A stretch of DNA of 64,000 nt, taken from NCBI GenBank assembly GCA_017979445.1, contig CM030709.1:1364001-1428000 (forward strand). The letters are read 5' to 3'. Positions 2,950 to 60,559 of the stretch are shown here, piece after piece. The DNA comes from Akebia trifoliata (Eukaryota > Streptophyta > Magnoliopsida > Ranunculales > Lardizabalaceae). A program made the translations under genes and the position numbers. Position 1 is the stretch's first letter. Each line of letters begins with the position of its first letter. The notes beneath the pieces are model-generated. The model did not search any database and was not told the DNA's origin. It saw only the letters and a list, made by a program, of their open reading frames with translations.

Positions 2950-3158
2950 TAAGGGTGCAACTTGGTTCGGGTTAGTTCAGTTTAGAGTAAACTTAGAATC
3001 GAACCGACCAAGATCAGTTTCATTATATGAGAACCAAAATCGAACCGAATTATTTTATAACCGAACCAATCCAAATCGAACTTATTTCGGTTTGGTTTGG
3101 TTCAGTTCCATGGGTTGTCAAGGAAGAGTAGAAATTCTTTAGGTTCTTTTGCATCTTA

Positions 3159-3206
<48 letters not shown>

Positions 3207-3756
3207 GGCGGGGGGAACCTGTCGCATCCTCAGGTGGCACCGTCGGAAGACACAGCATCGCAGGATGCACCATCACAGTCACAGGTCTTCCTGTCGCAGG
3301 TTGCAACTTGAGAGAGAGAAAGAGCGAGTGAGAGAGATAGGTGAGGCAGTCGATGGCAGTTGCAGGCCTCAGGCAGCAGAGATGACATAGAGAGAGCGAG
3401 CGAGCGAGAGAGAAAAAGAGGTGAGGCAGCTGGTGGCAGTAGCAGGCCTCAGGCCATAGAGACGACAGAGAAAGAGACGAGAGGGAGAGACGAGGGTTTG
3501 GTTAGGTTAGATTAGATTTTGTAAGAAATAAGAAATATAAATATAAATTTTATTCTTTTATTTTAAATTAATATTATTCGATTTTCGGGTTAGTTCAATT
3601 TTTTATATTACTTAAACAGAGAATCGAATCGAATTTATCGATTTTTTATTTTTTAAATTCAAAACCGAATCGATATCAATCTAAACCTAACCAAACCAAT
3701 CCAATTGCACGATTTGGTTCGATTCTTGATTTAAATCAAATTAAGTTGCACCCCTA
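2950..3756. mobile_element. hAT-like non-autonomous element with GA-rich cargo
   Basis: The termini are TAAGGGTGCAACTT on the left and the reverse complement of TAGGGGTGCAACTT on the right. Subterminal GGTTCGG / GAACCGAACC repeats follow on both sides. The flanking 8-mers (AGTTGTAC and TTTTGTAT) agree at five positions, so any target duplication has decayed. The same termini and subterminal repeats occur in the element at 51558-52690, which makes these two members of one family. The interior (3162-3500) is a GA microsatellite plus a degenerate tandem repeat unlike the AT-rich ends. No transposase is visible. Confidence 0.72.
3162..3500. repeat. GA microsatellite and 80-bp tandem repeat
   Basis: An uninterrupted GA run covers about 3162-3200. 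Further on, two imperfect tandem copies with an 80-bp period (from 3341 and from 3421) share GTGAGGCAG, then GGCAGT, then GCAGGCCTCAGGC, with GA-rich linkers. Open frames across it are low-complexity Arg/Glu runs and not genes. Confidence 0.8.
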
Positions 3757-42197: not shown

Positions 42198-45100
42198 TTG
42201 GTTTCTCTCCTAACACTCCCCTCTTGCCTCTTTTATTTTATCTCAGTTCCAACTTCCCCCACCATTAATAAATTGAAATTTCATGTTTTGAGTGCAAAAC
42301 AACATAGAGAATACAACATCCATGAAGACAAGGGGCTCTTAACATTTAAGCTACTCAAATTGGCTTTAACAAACTACCCTTACATTCTAGTTGAATGACA
42401 TATGTATCCCACCCAACATGAATAAAATGGTAAGGCTTTTGGGTTTGTCTAATTTGTTGAATCTTAACCACACTTTCATGCCTAATGGGTTAGTGGGGAC
42501 AGTATAATCCGATGCTATTAAACGGGTTTACCAGGATCATACAAACATTAGGTTCATGTAATTAAGATCTTAAGCCCTAGGGAAGGTTTCTCATTTGAGA
42601 GTAAGTTCTTCAATTTTAAATTTTTGGAGGTTATTTTGGTCATTTAATGAGGACTAATTAAGAGTATGTATGTATGTATGTATGTGGGGTTATGATTAGT
42701 GTTATATGAAAACAAGATAAGAAGGGAAGTTGAAAGAGTTAAAAGCATCTTTCAAAGAAATGGACATTTAGTAGGAGCCTACTCTTGGACTTAGCCTTCC
42801 TCTCTTATTCTCTATTACCAAAGATTCTCTTCTTTAATCTATTTGAAAAGTGTTGATGGGGCCTATCGGTCAAACGGTTTGTTGGATTTTCTTTTAGAGA
42901 TCTCTCTCTCCTCTCACACATAATTCATGACTATTCTCGGATCAAGGGAGAGGCAAAAATATCCCGAGCCCAAAAAGTTCATTTACCTAAAGAAAAATTC
43001 CAACCAAGTGTTGACTCGAGATCCTGGGAACAAAATGATTGCTAGCATGATTCTTGATTAAATACATGTGAAATGATTTAGATAAGTTACGATATTTTAC
43101 TAACATGTAATTAATATATAACGAAAGATGCATACAAAATTTTAAAATTTGTGTAAATATCTCTGAGAGTGATATGAATAAGATATCATGCATTATGCTA
43201 AGAAAAAATGAAATCCTATAAAAATAGACGACTGATGAAAATAAGTAATCCTAACTAAAATTACCACTACATTCTACTAAAATTGTTATTGTTTTGATTG
43301 TTGTAATACATTGACAAGACTCTCGAGAGTCGAGAGAAGAAACAAACATCATAAATAAATGATTCAAAGATTGTGCTCATATTTGTGACCCACCACAACT
43401 ATTACTAAAGGTAAAGGGGTTAAAAAAGAATGCAGTTGATGTTGACAAGTTACCAAGACTAAACCATTGGATTAAATAATGGTTAACCATTTAAAGAATT
43501 GTTACCCATAAAAGAAAGAAAGAATTATGTCGTTGCTCGTGTAAAGAGATCTAGTAATCTCTTTCATTCACTTTCCAAGATCGCTTAACCCTACACGTTA
43601 ATGGTATATGTTAGAATTAAAGTGAAATTGAGGGGTCACAGGATCCATTGTTTGATTACAAGATAATTGTCCGATGAGAGTCAGTCTCCCAAAAAATACC
43701 CCACAAGGCCAGAATTAGGCTCATCTTTCTCCTTATTAATCACCATGGTTTGTTATCATTGACCAGAAGTCAATATTTTTCGATGAAATGTGACAAATCA
43801 AGTTCAAGCTTCCTACCAATCATGACCTTTTATGTGAGTGTGAAACCCAACGGTTGGGATAAAAGTTGTATCCAGAGAATACATTACAGATTTCTGAGAT
43901 AAATCTCATATATAGACGGTAGAGATTGTGTGAAGGCACGAGTTCACTTTCATGAGTCTCCAGATCCCAAACCTATGTTATATTACTTTTTTTTTTCCCC
44001 CAAAAATGTGATTAGTTGCTTACAAAATTATCAAACCTTCAACCATATAATAATTTTGTTAATTTTTTTCCCATATAATTTTCATAATCTTTTTGACAAG
44101 GTTTTAACCAGGCCATCTATAACTATAGCTTAGAATTAAGGATTTTTCAAAGTAAAATTTAAAAAAAAAAAAAAAAAACCTAACCCTAGATTATGGTTCA
44201 GTTAATTCAAGAGGCATAAGATCAAATTCCAAGAATCATTATTTCAAAATGAGAAATGCTAAATGGACACATTTTTGGGCAACGCACCAGACGCCATATG
44301 ACATGTTGGCTCACAACCCAACAAATGTTTGACATCTGGCACAATAACAATAATAAAGAGCTTCTCTCTCTTGTCCGCTGCTCACATATTTATATATTTT
44401 GATTTCAAATCTTAAAATAGGTTGTTAGACCCTCATTGACAATCCAACAGCACACACAGCTTTTTAGATTTCATGAAAATATTCATATAAAAAAAAATTA
44501 AATATTATTTTTCAAACTTGATCCAATGGACAGTCACGAGTAACAAAATTTAAAAACAAAATTCAACTATGAAAAATAACTATTTTTAAAAAAATAAATA
44601 AAATTTAAAGTTCATATAATTATCTTCAACAACTCCATTGCATTGGTCATGTTTTTAAATGTCACAAGGTGATCGACTCAGAAAGTTTGATTTTTTAACT
44701 ATGGGCAAGTGAGAGAAAAGGGCGCATTTAGCATCACTCTTTCAAAATTAGAACTTTTTAATGTTTTAAGAACTCACCCAGAGATTCATAACTCACCCTG
44801 AGATTCAAAATGACTCCTTATAAGATAATCAACATGAATCATCCACTACATTGATTCATCTAAGATGAGAGATGCTTCTATTACATATCCTGAATGATTA
44901 ATTTCAGTTTTTTCACATAAAAATAATTGAAATACGTATCATTATATACATACAAGAAATCTGTCATCCGCCTTATAACATTAAAATTATTATTATTTAA
45001 ATATAAATGCATATCTTAATGAACAATTTAAAGGACCTAAACAATTTGCTTTCCATAAGGTCAAACAAAAAGAATGCTCCGTAAGAAAACTAATAATGCA

Positions 45101-45624
45101 CAAGCATTTGGTTTCCATTGAAGGAGAAACCAAAAGGTCTTGCTGGCCAGCGCTAGTAGCATATAAAAGGTTATTTTATCTCAAGCCTTCAAATTTCTTG
45201 AGACCTTGTCAAATTTGAGGCTAAGGATTGAATTGGTATGTTCCAATTACTATTTCTGAATTCTGATAGCAACATCAGCTCTTCACCCATGTGTAGGTTA
45301 CCCGCAGCACGTTTACACACAATCCTTCAATAATTCAAAGATGCAAATTAACTGCATCATGTTTCTACACAATCCCTCCATCATTCGAAGATGCAAATTA
45401 CTCTGATGCCACATCCCAAGAAGGCATGACAAGGCAAGGGTTTCCAAACAAAATGTAAATTAAATCTTAAACCAATATTTCTAATTCAAAACTTTGTTCC
45501 ACGAAAACAAGAAGAGTAATAAACATAATAGTTCTTGAGCTAAACAGAGTTCATCGAAATCATGACATATCCAAAGAAGCCATGTAAAACTATACCTGGT
45601 GCCAAATTGTCGTTGGAAAAACAA
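42198..45624. other. Spacer up to the first eS4 gene
   Basis: From about 43128 this is the left part of the eS4 duplication unit. 43173-43935 is present only in this copy. A poly-A run lies at 44161-44178, and 44390-44710 belongs to the dispersed repeat described at 34217. No gene other than eS4 is recognised. Confidence 0.5.
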
Positions 45625-48640
<3,016 letters not shown>

Positions 48641-48735
48641 CTTGCGCTTGTTCTTCTGGAAATCTCACGCCTCCGAAGCTAACCCGCCACTCCTGCAGTT
48701 CTGCTTCAGCTATTAGGAACTGCTGTGGAAAACAA

Positions 48736-48743
48736 AAACCCTA
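48736..48743 (+). promoter_or_regulatory. Telo-box in the eS4 copy A promoter
   Basis: AAACCCTA about 96 bp upstream of the start codon. Telo-boxes are typical of plant ribosomal protein and other growth-linked promoters. The equivalent in copy B is at 59759-59766. Confidence 0.7.
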
Positions 48744-48769
48744 GCTGCTTTGTTAGATGAAATATAATG

Positions 48770-50025
48770 GATAGTCGAAAATTCGAATTCGTATTCGAAA
48801 TTTCGGATATCAAATTCGGATTCGGATATATTCTAAGTATTCGAATAGATTTCTGATACGAATTCGGATGTTGATACATCCGAATCGTTAATATCCGATC
48901 CGATACCAATTTGCTTTCAATTTAATTATATATAAATAAAAGTCGAAGACATCTTTTTTATATATTATATATGGGTCCCGTTCATCAACAAACATTTTGA
49001 CAAACATTTTGGCAAAACATTTTTCAAAACATGAGATAGAAGTTTTGGAATGGGCTGATTTTTGATGAGGATTATTGACAGTGAGAAAAATTTTTTGAAA
49101 ACCATTTTTTGTAAACCATTTTTGATGGGGTTAGAAGTTTTGGAATAGGCTGATTTTCGGTGATGATGATCTCCTCACCGTAGAGATCATCCTCACAAAA
49201 AATCAGCCCATTCCAAAACGTCTAACCCATGTTTTGAAAAATGTTTTGCCAAAATGTTTGTCAAAATGTTTGTTGCTGAACATTTCCCATTATATATATA
49301 AATAAAAAGTGTAGGGCAGCTTTTTTATATTATATATATAAATAAAAGTTGTTAAGCAGCTTTTTCTGTTAAGTATTATATATATATAAAAAAAATCATC
49401 ATTTACAAGACTTGTGTGGAGGTCTCTCTCGATCCATCCATCCATCCATTAAAGAGAAATATTTGATCTCACAATTTTGAAGACATGACAGCCTCAAAGC
49501 TTATGGTCGGACAAGAATTTCGATTAAATAGATGATCAGTGATCGTAGAATATCCGAAGATAAAATGCTTGAGTTGGACATCCAAATCAAAGGTAAGATC
49601 TCATCATAGCTCCATCGTCATGGTAGACTTCGAAAACTCATCATCGTTAGCCTTTCCTATCATAAAAATCTTTATTCATTTTCTCAAATGTATTGAGATC
49701 TTAGATTCCAAGTGATTCCTCTCTCTCTCTCTTCCTTCAAACCACAACAAAAAACCCTTGATATTTTTGGGTTGAAAATGATTGAGTTGGAGAGGGAAAA
49801 TTTTAGGGTTTTTGGCTATGGGTTGAAGATAAGGTCATTTCGATCAATCATATATTAATTTCAAATCGGAAAATATAGGATATCTGACAAGTTAGTCGAA
49901 TTCGGATTCGAATGTCAATGTATTATATTTGATCAAATTCGAATTCGAAAATCAATATTTTTTTTTAAATTCGAATTCGAATATAGACATATCCGATCGG
50001 ACACTCAGTTAGCAAAAAAAAAAAA
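48770..50025. repeat. AATTCGAATTCGGATTCGG repeat upstream of eS4
   Basis: Motifs such as AATTCGAATTCG and ATTCGGATTCGGATA occur at the left (48780-48860) and right (49890-49995) sides around AT-rich sequence. The left part is also present upstream of copy B (59800-59900), so it predates the duplication. The MITE at 48973-49288 is nested in it. The element ends about 130 bp from the eS4 start codon, so the native promoter may be very short. Confidence 0.5.
48973..49288. mobile_element. 316-bp MITE with perfect 9-bp target duplication
   Basis: Terminal inverted repeats of about 60 bp: the left runs from GGGTCCCGTTCATCAACAAA to TTTTTCAAAACATG, the right is its near-perfect mirror from CATGTTTTGAAAAATG to the terminal TTTCCC. 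ATTATATAT flanks both sides (48964-48972 and 49289-49297). Nine bases fit Mutator-like transposition, though the AT-rich target reduces the weight. The interior holds a second hairpin (49137-49223). There is no coding capacity. Confidence 0.82.
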
Positions 50026-51557
50026 AAAAACCTAGACTAGGATTCGTTAATCTACAATTTTCGTGTTTGTCTCGTTGGACTTTAAACATAAATTGAAATA
50101 GCGTGTCCCAAACGGATTTCTAGTAACTTGGAAATTAAAGAAACTGGAATCCCACGAAATACATGGGATTCCACTTTCTCGTATCAATGCTCCTAGTGGT
50201 CAAGTTTTTCAACGCCTATGCCCTTCAATGCCTCTTCTCTATCTTTTTTCTCACATATATACTGAACTTATTTTCCTCACTAATCCATTCAAAATATCAA
50301 TTTTAAAATTGTGATTTTTTTTTAGTTTCATTAAGCTTCCTCTTATTTTCAATTTATACAGATTTTAGTCAAAATTTAATCATAAAATCATTTTTATTTT
50401 AAAAAATAGGCATTATTTATGATCTGATCCAAATGGTAGGTTCCCATTTTGAAAGAAAAAATACTAGTTTTTCTATTTTAAGTTTTAGTTTTGTTTATTT
50501 TTAAAATTTTAGAAATTATTTAATCACAAAATTTTATTTTTGGTTAATTAAGTTGAGTTTGAATCTTCATATTTATTTACTTGATAGCTAGAGATTTCAA
50601 AATTAGATGTAGCTTAAAAACAAATTTAATGGATTTTTTTAATTATCCGAATTTGAAAATTCACTATCATTTTTATGTTTTTGAAGCAAATTCCATAATA
50701 AACAATTTATTTTGAAAGTAGTTTCAGTTTTTCTTTCTTCTATTTTAGGAGTTAATTTATACTATCTTCTTCACTTTCAAATTTTAAAAATAGTTCTTGA
50801 TTTTTATTTTTTTATTTTTTTTTATTTTTGTGAGTTTTATGTATATTTTGTACTAATTTTTATATGCTTTAACATTAGATTTTTAAAAAAAGAACAATTT
50901 TCTCATAATGAATTTCAACTTCCTTTCTATTTCATTTTCTGAGTATTTTGTGTCACATTCATTTTTTAATATAATTCTAATATTTATTTTCTTTCCCTTT
51001 TCATTAATTACGGATCTTTGAATTATAATAATTTCTCTATCAATCACTCCCCCACTTGAAATATCTATGGAATTTTCATTTTTTTTAATATATTCTAGTA
51101 ATTTTTTATCCTATTTATGATCTTGTTCTTACTTTTGTGTGTATTTTACTAACGTGGAGTGATTTTCAAAAATTATAATGATGAAATATTTTTTAATTTC
51201 TAACAATTTAAGTTTTTCTATTAAGATTTTATTTTTTTATACTTGTTTTGGGGTTACAATTTAATATGAAATTCAAATTTTAAATATTTAGTACATCAGA
51301 ATAGATTGACACCAATGTCAAATAAACAATAAACAAACTAAATATATTTCATGAAAAATGTCGGACAAACAACATGAAAACTAATCCAACTCAAGATTTA
51401 TCACAACAGAGTCAAGGAAAATCCAATCCAGGATATGTAAAATGATTTTTGTTATTGCCAAACAGACACGGTGATGTCACTATAAAATAACCTAGAACAG
51501 CAGCTTGATGTCAATTTACGATATTGTCCTCCGGGTATAGAGCTGCATCGTATAAAT
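49298..51557. other. AT-rich spacer between duplicates
   Basis: Strongly T-rich plus strand from about 50250 to 51300 with many TTTTATTT runs. Open frames (for example 50712-50942) are low-complexity Phe/Leu/Tyr strings. No gene is recognised. Parts before 50025 belong to the repeat described at 48770. Confidence 0.55.
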
Positions 51558-52690
51558 TAGGCGTGCACATGGTTCGGATTGGTTCGGATTTTGGCAAAAT
51601 TGGAACCGAACCAAATATGGTCGGTTCTGCAAATTTAGAACCGAACCAATCGAATTACCCTATAGAACCGAACCAATCCAATCCAATCTTGGTTCGGATC
51701 GATTCTCATCAGTTGCTAATTTGGAAGATGTGTTCTTGAGGTTTGCTTTCCACAATATTTTTGTTGTTACATTTGGGAAGAATCCTAATTATCTTTCTAG
51801 GAATTTTCCTATTAACGAACTTTCCAAGGCGATTGACGTTGCTACTGAAGCCATATTTTATAGGCATGTAATTCCTAAAACATGGTGGAAATGGTGTCGT
51901 TGGTTGATGATCGGGAAGGAGAAGAAATTGGAGAAGGCAAAGAAAATCATAGATCGATATATGTCACAATTCATATCCTCAAAGAGAGAAGATATGCTTA
52001 AAGGTGTGGAAGAAACTGGTTTAATAACAGCTTACATGACTTCTTCTGAAGAAATTTCAAGAAATGATTTGCTACCTAAAGGTGAAGAGTTCCTTAAAGA
52101 CACAGGGTTGACCTTCCTTTTCGCGAGTCGAGATTCAACTGGTACAGCTCTTGCTTGGTTCTTCTGGGTGATTGCGAAGTCACCGCATGTGGAGGCGAAG
52201 ATCTTAGAAGAACTCAGCATTGTATTCTTGAAGAACACGAAAAGTGAAGGTGGCGTATAAACCAATCCAATCCACAGATGCAATATGGGTTAGTGTCACT
52301 GTTACCTCTTCGTAACACAGTTGAGAGAGAGAGAGTTACCTTTTCGTTTTCCGACGAGATGGCGAGGTGAAGTGAGTGAGGGAGACGAACGACGACGACG
52401 GCTAGGTTTTCAGCTTCTTCTAACTGGAAGAAGAGAGAAATACAAAACGAAAGTTTTGTTTTTTAATAATTAAATATATAAATATATATTAATATTATAT
52501 ATAAATTTGGTTCGGATTTCGGATTGGTTCGGTTCTATTATATGTCTAATTCGGAACCGAACCAAATCAACCAGATTTTTTTCTTTCGATCCGTACCCAA
52601 ACCATGAGTGTGTTCAATCCGAACCAATCCAATCCAAAAGCTTCGGATTGGTTCGGTTCTCGGATTTATCCAATCCAATGTGCACCCCTA
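51558..52690. mobile_element. hAT-like element carrying a P450 gene fragment
   Basis: The left terminus TAGGCGTGCACA (51558-51569) and right terminus TGTGCACCCCTA (52679-52690) are inverted repeats with one mismatch. GTATAAAT (51550-51557) and GTATAAAC (52691-52698) form an 8-bp target duplication, 7 of 8 matching, as for hAT elements. Both sides carry subterminal GGTTCGGATTGGTTCGG / GAACCGAACCAA arrays. Between them lie about 555 bp of CYP96A coding sequence and a GA-rich block with GACGACGACGACGG (about 52320-52440). No transposase is present, so mobilisation would need one in trans. Confidence 0.85.
51706..52260 (+). pseudogene. CYP96A-like cytochrome P450 fragment inside a hAT-like element
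   Basis: A continuous frame of about 180 codons corresponds to the middle of CYP96A P450s, a family that includes midchain alkane hydroxylases of cuticular wax synthesis. It contains LEDVFLRFAF, FGKNPNYLS, AIFYRHVIPKTWWKWCRWL, KAKKIIDRYMSQFISSKRE and the I-helix region LFASRDSTGTALAWFFWVIA. The usual AGRDTT reads ASRDST. The N-terminal anchor, the ExxR helix and the haem-binding Cys loop are all missing, so it cannot be a working P450. The frame starts without an upstream ATG (TTG at 51721) and ends in TAA shortly after KILEELS. CYP96A genes are usually intronless, so a genomic capture would look like this. There are no frameshifts over the length. Confidence 0.88.
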
Positions 52691-53712
52691 GTATAAACCT
52701 TAATGAGCGAGCAGGCTTGGGCTATGAAACATAAGCCCATAACTAACCTGTTTGCATTCCTGTTTGGGCTGGGTTTCGGGCCTCACTTTTTTTTAAATTT
52801 TTTTTTAACATTCCTATTAATGGCTTAACCAGAATGATTATTAGAATCAACAGAATTGATGAATGTAATCCTCGTAAACCTTTCAAAGTCTTTGGCTTAT
52901 AAATAAGGGATCAAAGTCTATTGGTGGCTTATCCTCCCTTGAGTTTGTGAGGGGTACTTACATGTAAGGTTTAGAGCTATCCATGATTCGGGATTGGCCC
53001 AACGGGTCGGAGACTAGGTTTGGTTAAATGTTACTGTATCCATTTAGTTATGGACCAGAGCTGAATTGGTTAGGTTTGATTCATGTTTTGGGCTGGGCCA
53101 ATATATATATATATATATAAGAAAGTGTGTGTACAAAATTTTAAGATTTGTGATAATATCTCTGAGAATGACACGACTTCACTTTCATGAGTCTACAGAT
53201 CCCAACCTATATCATATTACTTCTTTTTTTTTTTTTTTTTTCTAAAAATGTGATTAGTTGCGTGCAAAATAATCAAACCTTCAATCATATAATAATTTTG
53301 TTAATTTTTTTCCCATATAATTTCCATAATCTTTTTGACAAGGTTTTAACCAGGCCATCTATTACTACAGCTTATTATTAAGAATTTTTCAAAGTAAAAT
53401 TAACAAAAAAAAAAAAATCTAACCCTAGATTATGGTTCATTTAATTCCAGAGACATAAAATCAAATTCCAAAAATCATTATTTCAAGATGAGAAATTCTA
53501 AATGGAAGCATTTTTTGCCAAAGCCCCTGGCATCGTATGACATGTTGGCTCACAACCTAACAAATGTTTGACATGTGGTGCAATGACATCAGCAATAGAG
53601 AAAGCTTCTCTCTCTTGCCCCCCTACCCACGTATTTACTTTTTTAGATTTCAAATCTTAAAAAAGGATTGACATTGATTATTATAATGACAATCCAATAA
53701 CACAGCCTTTTA

Positions 53713-55509
53713 GGACTTGTGTGGATACTGTAGTCAGAAGTACTCCGCCCAAAAGTTGGATTTGAAGTACTTTACGAAAGAGTTAGAGAAATACTTCAAA
53801 ACAAGACATGTGTTTAGAACAAAACTCTACAAAGTACTTCTGTGCTAGAATTACATTTGAAAGTTATTCTGACTTTCGAAAAACTAGATTACCCTTATAT
53901 TGAACATGTTATTATATAATTTTTTGTCCATTTTTGATAATAGAGAATTTCATATATAATGAAAAGATCTTTCTTGAGAAGGGCATTTCTTGCCAACCTT
54001 AACTGAAACACCTAAAATTACCTATAATACTAAAAAAAACAAACTTATATGGTCAAATTTCATTGTGAGAGATTTTAGCTACAAGTTTGAACCAGAACAA
54101 AAGCCAATCTTTATTACTTCTATAATACAGAGACCTTCAAGTTTGGAGGACAAAAGAGATGAAAATAGCAAATGCGTTTTGCACATATGAGATTATTAGA
54201 AATTAATTGCGATGGATGCAATAATCGGAAAATTTTAAAACAATTACTTGTTTCAAATGAATTGATTGCCATGGAATAGTGTAACATCAAAGACAAACAA
54301 ATTAGTTATTGTTTCTAAATTTGAACAAATTAATTCAAATTTGAAATGTCCAAACAAAATTAATTGGAAATTTAAAAGGGAAATTTTGAAAGAAATTGAT
54401 TGCCATGGAACACATCTTTAATTTGTACGATCGATAGAGATCATGTGTTGGAAAAGACATTTGGGGGTTTGATATTTTATTAGTAGAATATTGATCGAAT
54501 GCATGGAAGGACCTATTCGTCCTCGATTTTTATTTTATTTCAAAATAAAAATAACATTTCTGACAATGGAAAAAGAGAACACGACGATGGAAGTCCTGGC
54601 ATCTAGAAATGGAAATCAGAGAAGAGAGGGATTAATAGAGAAGATGATGAGTTCGTGCAATTAAAGAAGGGGCATGTGTGAAATTTCATAAATGTATGAG
54701 GGGCATAAAGGTCATTTGAAGCCATTTTTTTACTGTAAGGGTATGTTTGATTGCATGGAAAGTCACTTTGCATGGAATTTGAAATCCATGGAAAATAGGT
54801 AGGGTTGGAAAGTCAAATTCCATTGTTTGATTTCACTTGGATAAAATCATGGAAAAAATATGAGAAAAAAGAAGAAGAGGAGAAGGAGGAAGAAGACGAG
54901 AAGATGGGGAGAGGAAGAAGAAGATGACGAGGAAGAGGAAAGGGGGAGGATGTGGCGACGGTGGCGACGGCAGCGAAGGTGGCGGCGACGGGGACGACCG
55001 AGGTAAGTGAGGAAGATGGGGGGAAAACGTCGTGGTGGTGGTGGTGGCAGAGGAGGTGAGGGATGGAGAAGAAGAAGAGAGAGAGAGAGAAAGTGGTCGG
55101 AGACAGAGCCGACAGCGACGGCGACGGTGATGGTGACGACGACGACAACGACGGCGAGGTTAGTGTAATGGTGGTGGTGGTGGTAGGAAAGAATTGAGGA
55201 TGGAAAATATGGGTGGATTTCATTTTCCCACCCATATGGGTGGGAAAGTGAAATCCATGATTTAATGGACTTTTTGAATGGGATGGAAAATAAATTTCCA
55301 TTTCATGTGCAATCAAACACTTGAAAAATGCCATTTTCCATGGAATTTAATTTTCCACCCTATTTTCCATGTGCAATCAAACATACCCTAAATATTGCTC
55401 CCCGCAAGAGCAGTGTTAGGAACCCCTTTTTGTTATTTTTTTACTGGAGAGCTTTTAGCTCTTGTGAGCAGAAGTATTTGAGAAGTCGTATCCAAAGGCC
55501 AACTAAGAT
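53713..55509. mobile_element. Copy B-specific 1.8-kb nested insertion
   Basis: Copy A reads continuously across the point where copy B has this block (copy A about 44463-44475). The left end GGACTTGTGTGGATAC and the reverse complement of the right end (GGCCTTTGGATAC) resemble each other, and both continue to CAGAAGTACT / AAATACTTCTG motifs. This suggests a DNA transposon of about 1.15 kb into which the element at 54739-55388 later inserted. Exact ends and target duplication are unclear. Confidence 0.65.
54739..55388. mobile_element. 650-bp PIF/Harbinger-like MITE with TAA duplication
   Basis: The left end GGGTATGTTTGATTGCATGG is mirrored by the right end, whose reverse complement reads GGGTATGTTTGATTGCACATGG. 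TAA flanks both sides (54736-54738 and 55389-55391), the target preference of PIF/Harbinger elements. CATGGAAA/ATCCATGG motifs recur inward on both sides. The core (54850-55190) is extremely purine-rich on the plus strand (GAAGAAGAGGAGAAGGAGG-type) with GGTGGCGACGG repeats. Its 173-codon minus-strand frame is low-complexity Ser/Pro/His and not a gene. Confidence 0.83.
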
Positions 55510-56669
55510 ATTATGAAAATATTCATATTTTAAAAATTAAATTTTTTTTTAATATTATTTTTTGAATTTGATCCAATGGATGATCACGAGTAATCAAATT
55601 TAAATAACAAAATTCAATGGTAAAAAACAATTATTTAAAAAAAAATTAAGTTCATATAATTTTGTCGTCTACAACTCCATTGCATTGGATCATGTTTTTG
55701 AATGTCACAAGGTGATCAAATCAGAAAGTTTACTTTTTTTTCACCATAGGCAGGAGAGAGAAAGAACATTGCATTTAACATGACTCTTTCAAAATTCGAA
55801 CTTATCTAACGTTTTAAGAACTCACCCGGACATTCATAACTCACCCTGAAATTCAAAATGACTCCTTATAAGATAATCAACATACGTCATCCACTAAATT
55901 GACTCATCTTAAGATGAGAGATGCCTCTATAACATACCTTGAATGATTAATTTTGATTTTTTTTACAAAAAATAATTGAAATACAAGAAATCTGCCATCC
56001 GCCTTATCAAATTAAAATTATTATTTAAATATAAATGAATATCTTAATGAACAATTTAAAAGACCTAAACAATATGGTTTCCATTAAGGCCAAACAAAAA
56101 GAATGCTCCGTTAAGAAAGCTAATAATGCATAAGCATTTGGTTTCCATTGAAGGAGAAACCGAAAGGTCTTGCTTGCTTGCCATTCAGCAAGAACAGAAC
56201 CAGCACTAGTAGAGCATATAAAAGGTTATTTTATCTCAAGCCTTCAAATTTCTTGAGACCTATGTTAAAATTTGAGGCTAAGGATTGAAATGGTATGTTC
56301 CAATTACTAGTTCTGAATTCTGATAGCAACATCAGCTCCTCACCCATGCGAATGTTAACCGCAGCATGTTTACACACAATCCTTCAATCATTCAAAGATG
56401 CAAATTAACCGCAGCATGTTTTTACACAATCCTTCCATCATTCAAAGATGCAAATTACTCTGACACCACATTCCAAGAAAGCATGACTTCTAAACAAAAT
56501 GTAAATTAAATCTTAAACCAATATTTCTACTACAAAACTTTGTTCCACGAAAACAAGAAGAGAAAATAAACATAATGGTTCTTGAGCTAAACAGTTCATC
56601 AAAATCATGACATATCCAAAGAAGCCATGTAAAACTATACCTGATGCCTAATTGTCGTTGGAAAAACAA

Positions 56670-59673
<3,004 letters not shown>

Positions 59674-59758
59674 TCTTGCACTTGTTCTTCTGGAAATCTC
59701 CCGCCTCCGAAGCTAAACCTCCACTCCTTCAGCTATTAGGAACTGCTGTGGAAAACAA

Positions 59759-59766
59759 AAACCCTA
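59759..59766 (+). promoter_or_regulatory. Telo-box in the eS4 copy B promoter
   Basis: AAACCCTA about 86 bp upstream of the start codon. The leader is about 10 bp shorter than in copy A because of a small deletion around 59725. Confidence 0.7.
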
Positions 59767-60101
59767 GCTGCTTTCTTAGATCAAATATACTTAGGTTGTC
59801 AATGGATAGTCGAAAATTCGAATTCGGATTCGGATATATTCTAAGTATTCGAATAAATTTCGGATACGAATTCGGATGTTAATACATCCGAATCGTTAAT
59901 ATCCGATCCGTTACCAATTTGTTTTCAATTTATATTATATATAAATAAGAGTTGAAGACATCTTTTTTTTATATTATATATTAAAATAAAAAGTGTAGGA
60001 CAGCTTTTTTATATTATATGTTATATATAAATAAAAATTTTATATTATAAGTTATATATAAATAAAAGTCATTGTTATCAAGATTTTTATATTATATATA
60101 T

Positions 60102-60441
60102 GGTCCGTTCAGCACCAAACATTTTGGCCAACATTTTAGTCAATCATTTTTGTCTTACATGAGTTAAAAGTTTTGGAATGGGCTGATTTTTGGTGAGGAT
60201 GATCTCTACGGTGAGGAGATCACCCTCACCAAAAATCAGCCAATTCCAAAACCTCTAGCCCCATGTTTATAAGTTGAAAAATCGTGGACCGTCCATTTTT
60301 TGTAAACCATTTTTGATGGAGTTAAAAATTTTGGAATGGGCTGATTTTTGGTGATGATGATCTCCTCACCGTAGAGATCATCCTCACCAAAAATCAGCCA
60401 ATTCCAAAACTTCTTACCCATGTTTTGAAAAATATTTTGCC
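60102..60441. mobile_element. Truncated relative of the 48973-49288 MITE with two hairpins
   Basis: The left end GGTCCGTTCAGCACCAAAC is a variant of the 48973 terminus. The right side reaches CATGTTTTGAAAAATATTTTGCCA and then stops, without the terminal part. The interior has two successive hairpins (60170-60252 and 60330-60415), each with arms of about 36 bp containing GGCTGATTTTTGGTGA. Their loops are in opposite orientation (CTACGGTGAG against CTCACCGTAG). It sits at a different point of the upstream repeat than the copy A element. Confidence 0.7.
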
Positions 60442-60559
60442 ACGACCCTCATCGCGACACAATAAATCAGCCATTGGATTTAGCGCAGATCAGCGGTCTA
60501 GATCGCATGTAGATTTAAATTCGATTGTAATGTAACAAAGTTTGCATATTTGCAAACGC

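What the first reader, a model, noticed from the sequence alone, without database searches (positions are those of the whole stretch)
51558..52690. hAT-like element that has captured an open CYP96A fragment
Readable termini (TAGGCGTGCACA / TGTGCACCCCTA), a 7-of-8 target duplication (GTATAAAT / GTATAAAC) and subterminal GGTTCGG arrays enclose about 555 bp of uninterrupted P450 coding sequence that stops at the cargo edge. Gene-fragment capture is best known from Pack-MULEs. In a small non-autonomous hAT-type element it is less commonly described, and an intact frame suggests recent capture or constraint. The cargo could yield a sense or antisense small-RNA source against wax-pathway CYP96A genes; that part is inference.
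Basis: partly seen in the sequence, partly recalled or inferred. Interest (0 to 1): 0.78.

Follow-up and report, generated by a model that had tools for sequence, protein, structure and literature searches.

The report
Small transposon carrying a stolen gene piece
A short, non-autonomous hAT-type jumping gene in a plant genome carries a copied piece of a cytochrome P450 gene; the piece looks like a decaying passenger, and the genome still holds the source gene, related elements without the piece, a transposase-coding relative and empty insertion sites, so the capture can be read step by step.

Summary
51558-52690 is a 1,133-bp element with short terminal inverted repeats and an 8-bp target duplication (7 of 8 match). 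Three paralogous empty sites on the same contig lack it exactly between these coordinates. It is hAT: same-end elements include a 5.3-kb copy with an open 704-codon frame matching zf-BED, hAT RNase-H and hAT dimerisation domains. The cargo (51706-52253) is 96% identical to part of an intact intronless MAH1-like P450 gene on C4. Seven cargo-bearing copies were found, consistent with one capture. The open frame is not evidence of constraint: 2 of 7 copies are open, the window branch fits neutral change (6 silent of 18; 5.15 expected), and no stop by chance has P 0.38, substitutions only. A 4-bp junction microhomology and a 15-nt stretch matching the element's own subterminal repeat favour template switching during repair over fusion of neighbouring elements. 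Gene capture by hAT elements is in print (grapevine 2008, maize 2011 and 2022). A well-resolved new member of a known kind. Small-RNA silencing is untested.

The parts
51550..51557 (.). left copy of 8-bp target duplication, GTATAAAT
   Evidence: single copy at three paralogous empty sites
51558..51569 (+). 5' terminal inverted repeat, TAGGCGTGCACA (commonest family form TAGGGGTGCACA)
51570..51705 (+). 5' subterminal region with GGTTCGG/CCGAACC and CCAAT repeats, shared with the cargo-less elements
51706..51709 (+). TCAT, 4-bp microhomology between element body and donor gene at the left capture junction
   Evidence: chance of 4 bp or more at a random pair of breakpoints 0.020
51706..52253 (+). 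captured P450 (MAH1-like/CYP96) coding piece, donor residues about 172-353 of 517; includes the I-helix region, lacks the heme-binding Cys motif
51556..52260 (+). 234-codon stop-to-stop frame through the 5' arm and cargo; first in-frame ATG at 51907
52254..52274 (+). right junction: CGTATA (source not found) then AACCAATCCAATCCA (52260-52274), a 15-mer identical to 51671-51685 and 52622-52636
52270..52690 (+). right body, closest to L021/L022 among 22 cargo-less two-ended elements compared
52494..52678 (+). 3' subterminal repeat region
52679..52690 (+). 3' terminal inverted repeat, TGTGCACCCCTA
52691..52698 (.). right copy of target duplication, GTATAAAC

Best explanation
A non-autonomous hAT element (Pack-hAT). 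An element, probably of the L021/L022 type, lost about 420 bp of its interior and had it replaced, during repair of a break or a stalled fork inside the element, by 548 bp copied from the MAH1-like P450 gene at C4:14316912-14318462 or its recent ancestor: synthesis switched to the gene at a 4-bp TCAT, copied one stretch of exon, switched through the element's own subterminal repeat (15-nt match) and returned to the right body at ATCCA. The chimera was then spread to at least seven sites, presumably by the transposase of related full-length elements; one copy inserted between two tandem repeats on C6. The cargo now decays neutrally. Shown: boundaries, empty sites, superfamily, closest donor gene, copy number in this assembly, fit to neutral change. 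Inferred: single capture (tree and shared junctions), parent subfamily, order of template switches, transposase supply in trans, absence of function.
For: Borders: 8-bp duplication, three empty sites. hAT: 5,291-bp same-end element L060, target duplication CATAGCAC 8/8, open 704-codon frame with zf-BED, hAT RNase-H and Dimer_Tnp_hAT, PDB relatives named transposase or Hermes transposase; transposase DNA of L048 has 24 matches covering the whole query or all but its last base, 84-100% identical, itself included, with 40 of 126 candidates scored. Donor: 96% over 548 bp; intact 517-residue intronless frame. One capture: cargo copies group together (support 84) and with the donor (100) against two other cluster genes; shared junctions where preserved. 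Junctions. Neutrality: four lineages 19 silent of 71 changes, 20.35 expected; donor branch 5 silent of 7, P 0.026.
Against: The 4-bp microhomology is modest (P 0.02, one junction). CGTATA has no source identified. Parent: the right arm is closest to L021/L022, but the left arm is closest to other elements (L041, L040, L035, L034; L021 is not among the eight listed), and L020, a copy with only its 3' part and not in that comparison, is closer on the right arm (90%) and may be a derivative of the cargo elements. Only three of seven cluster genes were in the tree. The donor is intronless, so DNA and RNA templates cannot be told apart. Two open frames of seven do not exclude weak or recent use. 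The ancestral cargo was inferred by weighted vote.
Confidence: 0.82

Rival explanations
1. Capture by fusion: two neighbouring elements flanking the P450 gene were mobilised as one, with later loss of internal ends (the Pack-CACTA model extended to hAT in PMC8903248).
For: Published model for all Pack-TYPE superfamilies (section 9 read).
Against: BLAST of the whole element (E<=1e-5) against L011-L019, C4:14240001-14330000 around the donor, found the P450 part only; short end motifs occur 0-2 times per locus there and were not examined. No internal terminal repeat seen in the element; the cargo joins both bodies in their interiors, with microhomology and a subterminal-repeat stretch. Flanking elements could have left the donor locus since.
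Confidence: 0.12
2. Selected cargo: the open frame, or a transcript of it, is kept because it regulates the CYP96 genes (sense or antisense small RNA) or makes a protein.
For: 178 of 525 cargo 21-mers match the donor gene perfectly (36 in locus L016, 8 in L011-L014); two copies keep an open frame; pairwise dN/dS donor-window is 0.32, like that between cluster genes (0.24-0.33); a CHG-context excess of C>T/G>A in the window copy, 6 of 41 against 11 of 346, P 0.005, hints at methylation.
Against: 5 of the 11 silent donor-window changes lie on the donor branch; on the window branch counts fit neutrality and P(no stop) is 0.38; window against L003 dN/dS is 1.37. No in-frame ATG before 51907; no heme motif; the donor's I-helix AGRDST reads ASRDST here. 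Five of seven copies are broken. Polarity of the CHG changes is not secured.
Confidence: 0.05
3. Not capture: a degenerate P450 gene at this locus with repeats inserted around it.
For: None found.
Against: Cargo copies at other sites share the junctions; three empty sites lack P450 sequence.
Confidence: 0.01

Closest known systems
Pack-hAT / Pack-TYPE elements of maize and rice (Gisby and Catoni 2022, PMC8903248; passages and section 9 read)
   Same: Non-autonomous hAT ends, 8-bp duplication, host gene piece inside
   Different: Another genome (probably a basal eudicot); donor, cargo-less relatives, transposase-coding relative and empty sites all found; junctions favour template switching rather than element fusion
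Ds elements with gene fragments in maize (PMC3260210; passages read)
   Same: hAT, gene piece copied from a known donor on another chromosome; the authors already mention repair of excision breaks as a suggested route
   Different: Ds-l4 share little with Ac beyond the 11-bp ends; here about 150 bp (5') and 370 bp (3') of body are shared with cargo-less relatives
Hatvine-6 of grapevine (PMC2528002; passages read)
   Same: One hAT family with constant ends and variable, often genic interiors
   Different: Hatvine-6 members are described as sharing transposase coding sequence; the element here is short and does not code for transposase
Pack-TIRs of animals, gap-filling/FoSTeST models (PMC8277862; abstract and passages read)
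   Same: Microhomology at breakpoints, interior breakpoints, multicopy spread after template switching
   Different: Animals; the authors say that application to plant Pack-MULEs is worth exploring

Membership tests
hAT superfamily | 8-bp target site duplication | tested here: met
   7/8 in the window copy, at least 7/8 in 24 of 28 copies, empty sites
hAT superfamily | short terminal inverted repeats shared with a transposase-coding element | tested here: met
hAT superfamily | transposase with zf-BED, hAT RNase-H and Dimer_Tnp_hAT in the same-end family | tested here: met
   L060; the window copy itself encodes none
hAT superfamily | mobilisation of these ends by that transposase | not testable with these tools
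   needs a transposition assay
Pack-TYPE (Pack-hAT) | non-autonomous, own ends and duplication, host gene piece inside that most of the family lacks | tested here: met
   7 cargo copies; 425 five-prime ends
Pack-MULE | Mutator ends and 9-bp duplication (recalled definition) | tested here: not met
   8-bp duplication, hAT transposase
CYP96A | donor is a full-length P450 close to named MAH1-like P450s | tested here: met
   (120 of 697 hits listed; MAH1-like names from 58% identity down; a few named 86B1-like or 86A2); F-x-x-G-x-R-x-C-x-G motif at 456
CYP96A | more than 55% identity to a named CYP96A (recalled nomenclature rule) and placement in a CYP96 tree | not tested
   no protein labelled CYP96A was compared; no CYP96 tree was built

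The most novel reading that the evidence does not exclude
This hAT family is a serial gene shuffler whose interior is swapped rather than only enlarged: the CYP96 piece replaced an earlier interior that itself shares 168 bp (95%) with a C12 locus; other members hold a 269-bp piece, a possible GDSL-lipase piece (in a transposase-coding copy), and in one 7.7-kb copy a patchwork matching C8, C12 and C13. All would arise by template switching at the element, a route suggested before for Ds and for animal Pack-TIRs but absent from the passages that I read of a 2026 review of plant gene capture.
Probability: 0.4. Interest if true: 0.62.

Novelty: new member of a known kind. Interest (0 to 1): 0.42.

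Why it matters
How cut-and-paste transposons pick up host genes in plants is unsettled: fusion of neighbouring elements or template switching during repair. One genome here holds cargo-less relatives, the donor, seven products, empty sites and a transposase-coding relative with an open frame, so the two models make different, checkable predictions. It also shows why an open reading frame inside a transposon is weak evidence of function.

Tried and rejected
Constraint on the cargo: not supported by the substitution counts and stop simulation; pairwise dN/dS donor-window 0.32 looked like constraint, but 5 of the 11 silent changes lie on the donor's branch. Other cargo copies against the donor gave 0.36-0.58. 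Pack-MULE: rejected (8-bp duplication, hAT transposase). Fusion of neighbours: disfavoured, not excluded. Donor of the GDSL-like piece in L060: the genome search did not complete and Pfam gave no match, so that name is a recalled resemblance. Pfam gave no match above cut-off, and PDB nothing, for the C12 piece. IQ-TREE printed no tree in the first run and was rerun with a simpler model. Species: the best protein hits are from Kingdonia, Macleaya, Aquilegia and Thalictrum (all Ranunculales, recalled), and with 16 large contigs and 652.5 Mb I guess Akebia trifoliata; the held paper on subsp. australis reports 682.14 Mb (abstract and passages). I made no search for related loci, the DNA search, search_dna_similar or structure prediction.

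Full report
What was checked. The element at 51558-52690 is as described: 12-bp imperfect terminal repeats, subterminal GGTTCGG/CCGAACC arrays, an 8-bp flanking duplication with one mismatch. The window lies in a 652.5-Mb genome of 878 contigs (window = C6:1364001-1428000). A search with the element plus flanks found three places on C6, about 21-29 kb downstream (one inverted), where the left and right flanks meet without it; alignment shows one copy of TTATAAAC or TTATAAAT where the window has GTATAAAT and GTATAAAC. These are nearby paralogues, so the insertion is younger than their duplication.

Superfamily. The 30-base consensus 5' end occurs 213 + 212 times (up to 3 mismatches; reversed control 0 + 0). 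Of 28 both-ended copies tabulated, 24 have at least 7/8 matching duplication at the offset given by their termini, L021 and L037 8/8 with one boundary moved by a base, L047 6/8 and L004 4/8. L048 (4,901 bp) has the same ends and broken hAT transposase pieces. L060 (C4:1213583-1218873, 5,291 bp, duplication CATAGCAC 8/8) holds an uninterrupted 704-codon frame with zf-BED (E 5.7e-9), hAT RNase-H (3.8e-30) and Dimer_Tnp_hAT (1.5e-30); its four PDB matches are named transposase or Hermes transposase. L060's first 157 bp are 92% and its last 256 bp 86% identical to the window element.

Cargo and donor. P450 (PF00067, E 8.5e-15) matches residues 4-173 of the translated 51709-52257. A genome search with the cargo scored all 17 candidates: seven element copies (window, L002, L003, L004, L005, L006 and the split C15 copy L009/L010), seven places in a C4 cluster, and two weaker places (C4:834191, C2:11668005). 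Best non-element match: C4:14317422-14317969, 96%, inside an intronless 517-residue frame with the heme motif, whose best relatives are P450s of Kingdonia, Macleaya, Aquilegia and Thalictrum (up to 64%), several others being named alkane hydroxylase MAH1-like. Only the stretch of residues about 172-353 was taken.

One capture. The tree is ((((W,((L002,L003,L004,L006)100,L005)61)92,L009+10)84,donor)100, two other cluster genes), support in figures; copies share the junctions where these are preserved. L002-L004 and L006 differ from each other at 0-4 sites, so that branch moved recently.

Constraint. Relative to the voted ancestor the window branch has 6 silent and 12 replacement changes; random placement of the same number of mutations gives 5.15 silent on average; P of no stop is 0.38. 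Window, L002, L005 and L009+10 together: 19 silent of 71, 20.35 expected. The donor branch has 5 silent of 7 (P 0.026). Frames: window open; L003 open with a 12-bp deletion; L002 loses 1 bp, L004 gains 2 bp, L005 loses 13 bp and has two stops, L006 is truncated with a stop, L009+10 has two stops and an insertion of about 11.5 kb. The window copy also changes the I-helix glycine (AGRDST to ASRDST). Against this, the plain pairwise dN/dS donor-window is 0.32, of which the donor's own branch explains part.

How it was captured. At the left, cargo-less L021 reads GATTCTCAT-ACTTATT, the donor AATCAT-CTGTTG, the cargo copy L005 GATTCTCAT-CTGTTG: TCAT shared; 4 bp or more arises at 2% of random breakpoint pairs. 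At the right, GGTGG of the donor is followed by CGTATA, then AACCAATCCAATCCA, a 15-mer found at two other places in the same element, then sequence closest to L021 and L022 (87% and 85%) among 22 cargo-less two-ended elements. Two facts weaken the choice of parent: the left arm is closest to L041 and others (93%), not L021, and one-ended L020, outside that comparison, matches the right arm at 90%. BLAST found no element sequence other than the P450 part in the 90 kb around the donor. I read this as template switching; fusion (PMC8903248) remains possible.

Context. Capture by hAT elements is in print: grapevine Hatvine-6 (PMC2528002), maize Ds (PMC3260210), Pack-hAT (PMC8903248). PMC3260210 already mentions replication errors during repair of excision breaks as a suggested cause. 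I saw no report of this element or of a CYP96 piece in a hAT in the lists returned for Pack-TYPE with hAT (15 of 3,357 listed), 'nonautonomous hAT'/'gene fragment capture' (13), 'Pack-hAT' (2), hAT with P450 and transduplication (13), template switching terms (10 of 15) and Akebia with capture terms (10 of 38); I judged these by titles and abstracts except where passages are cited, and subscription journals are mostly missing from the library. The 2026 review (PMC13317346, passages) has no occurrence of 'hAT'; for DNA transposons the passages describe the Pack-CACTA fusion route and add that another, undiscovered mechanism may exist.

Limits. No expression, small-RNA or methylation data; the CHG-biased C>T/G>A pattern (6 of 41 against 11 of 346, P 0.005) is a hint of methylation only. 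Species and age were not established. Searches scored only the best 40 candidates where more existed.

Noticed in passing
L047 2086-9810 (C8:9669885-9677609): 7,725-bp same-end element; its part 4600-9200 matches, in order, C8:4251320-4252649 (96%; also matched elsewhere on C11), C13:307018-307876 (89-95%), C12:33413551-33414280 (94%), C13:10560201-10561005 (95%; receptor-kinase-like by eye, no Pfam match), then two repeat pieces. Three joins overlap by 2-5 bp, two are separated by 33 and 107 bp. Flanking duplication only 6/8 (40 of 3,987 candidates scored).
   Followed up: partly
L060 4309-4704: 131-codon frame resembling a GDSL esterase/lipase (recalled resemblance; Pfam gave no match) inside the 5.3-kb transposase-coding element, possibly another captured gene piece.
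   Followed up: partly
window 50838-51106: 269 bp close to the element is 89-92% identical to a stretch at 11 other places; 10 of these also show both end regions of this family close by and one shows a 5' end only. One, L057, has TTAACAAC on both sides. Direction of transfer unknown.
   Followed up: partly
L021/L022 interior; L059 582-749 (C12:6125581-6125748): The subfamily nearest on the right arm has an interior (4 copies) with 168 bp 95% identical to a C12 locus; perhaps an older captured piece that the P450 piece replaced; gene not identified.
   Followed up: partly
L004 and L006 (C8:9443907-9461643): L004's 5' flank GAATTTAT equals L006's 3' flank, while L004's own two flanks do not match: fits an inversion of about 16 kb by recombination between two inverted copies.
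   Followed up: partly
L009/L010 (C15:8552855-8564330): About 11.5 kb inserted into the C15 cargo copy; not identified.
   Followed up: no
window 2950-3756: A second, diverged element of similar design (ends like TAAGGGTGCAACTT / AAGTTGCACCCCTA, read by eye).
   Followed up: no
window 43937-49343 and 53172-60442: Duplication (91% over 4.5 kb) with ribosomal-protein-S4-like frames (name recalled), the element lying between the two copies.
   Followed up: no
L049 127-1020 (C67): A truncated same-family 3' end overlaps the start of the first frame of what looks like a WD40 gene.
   Followed up: no
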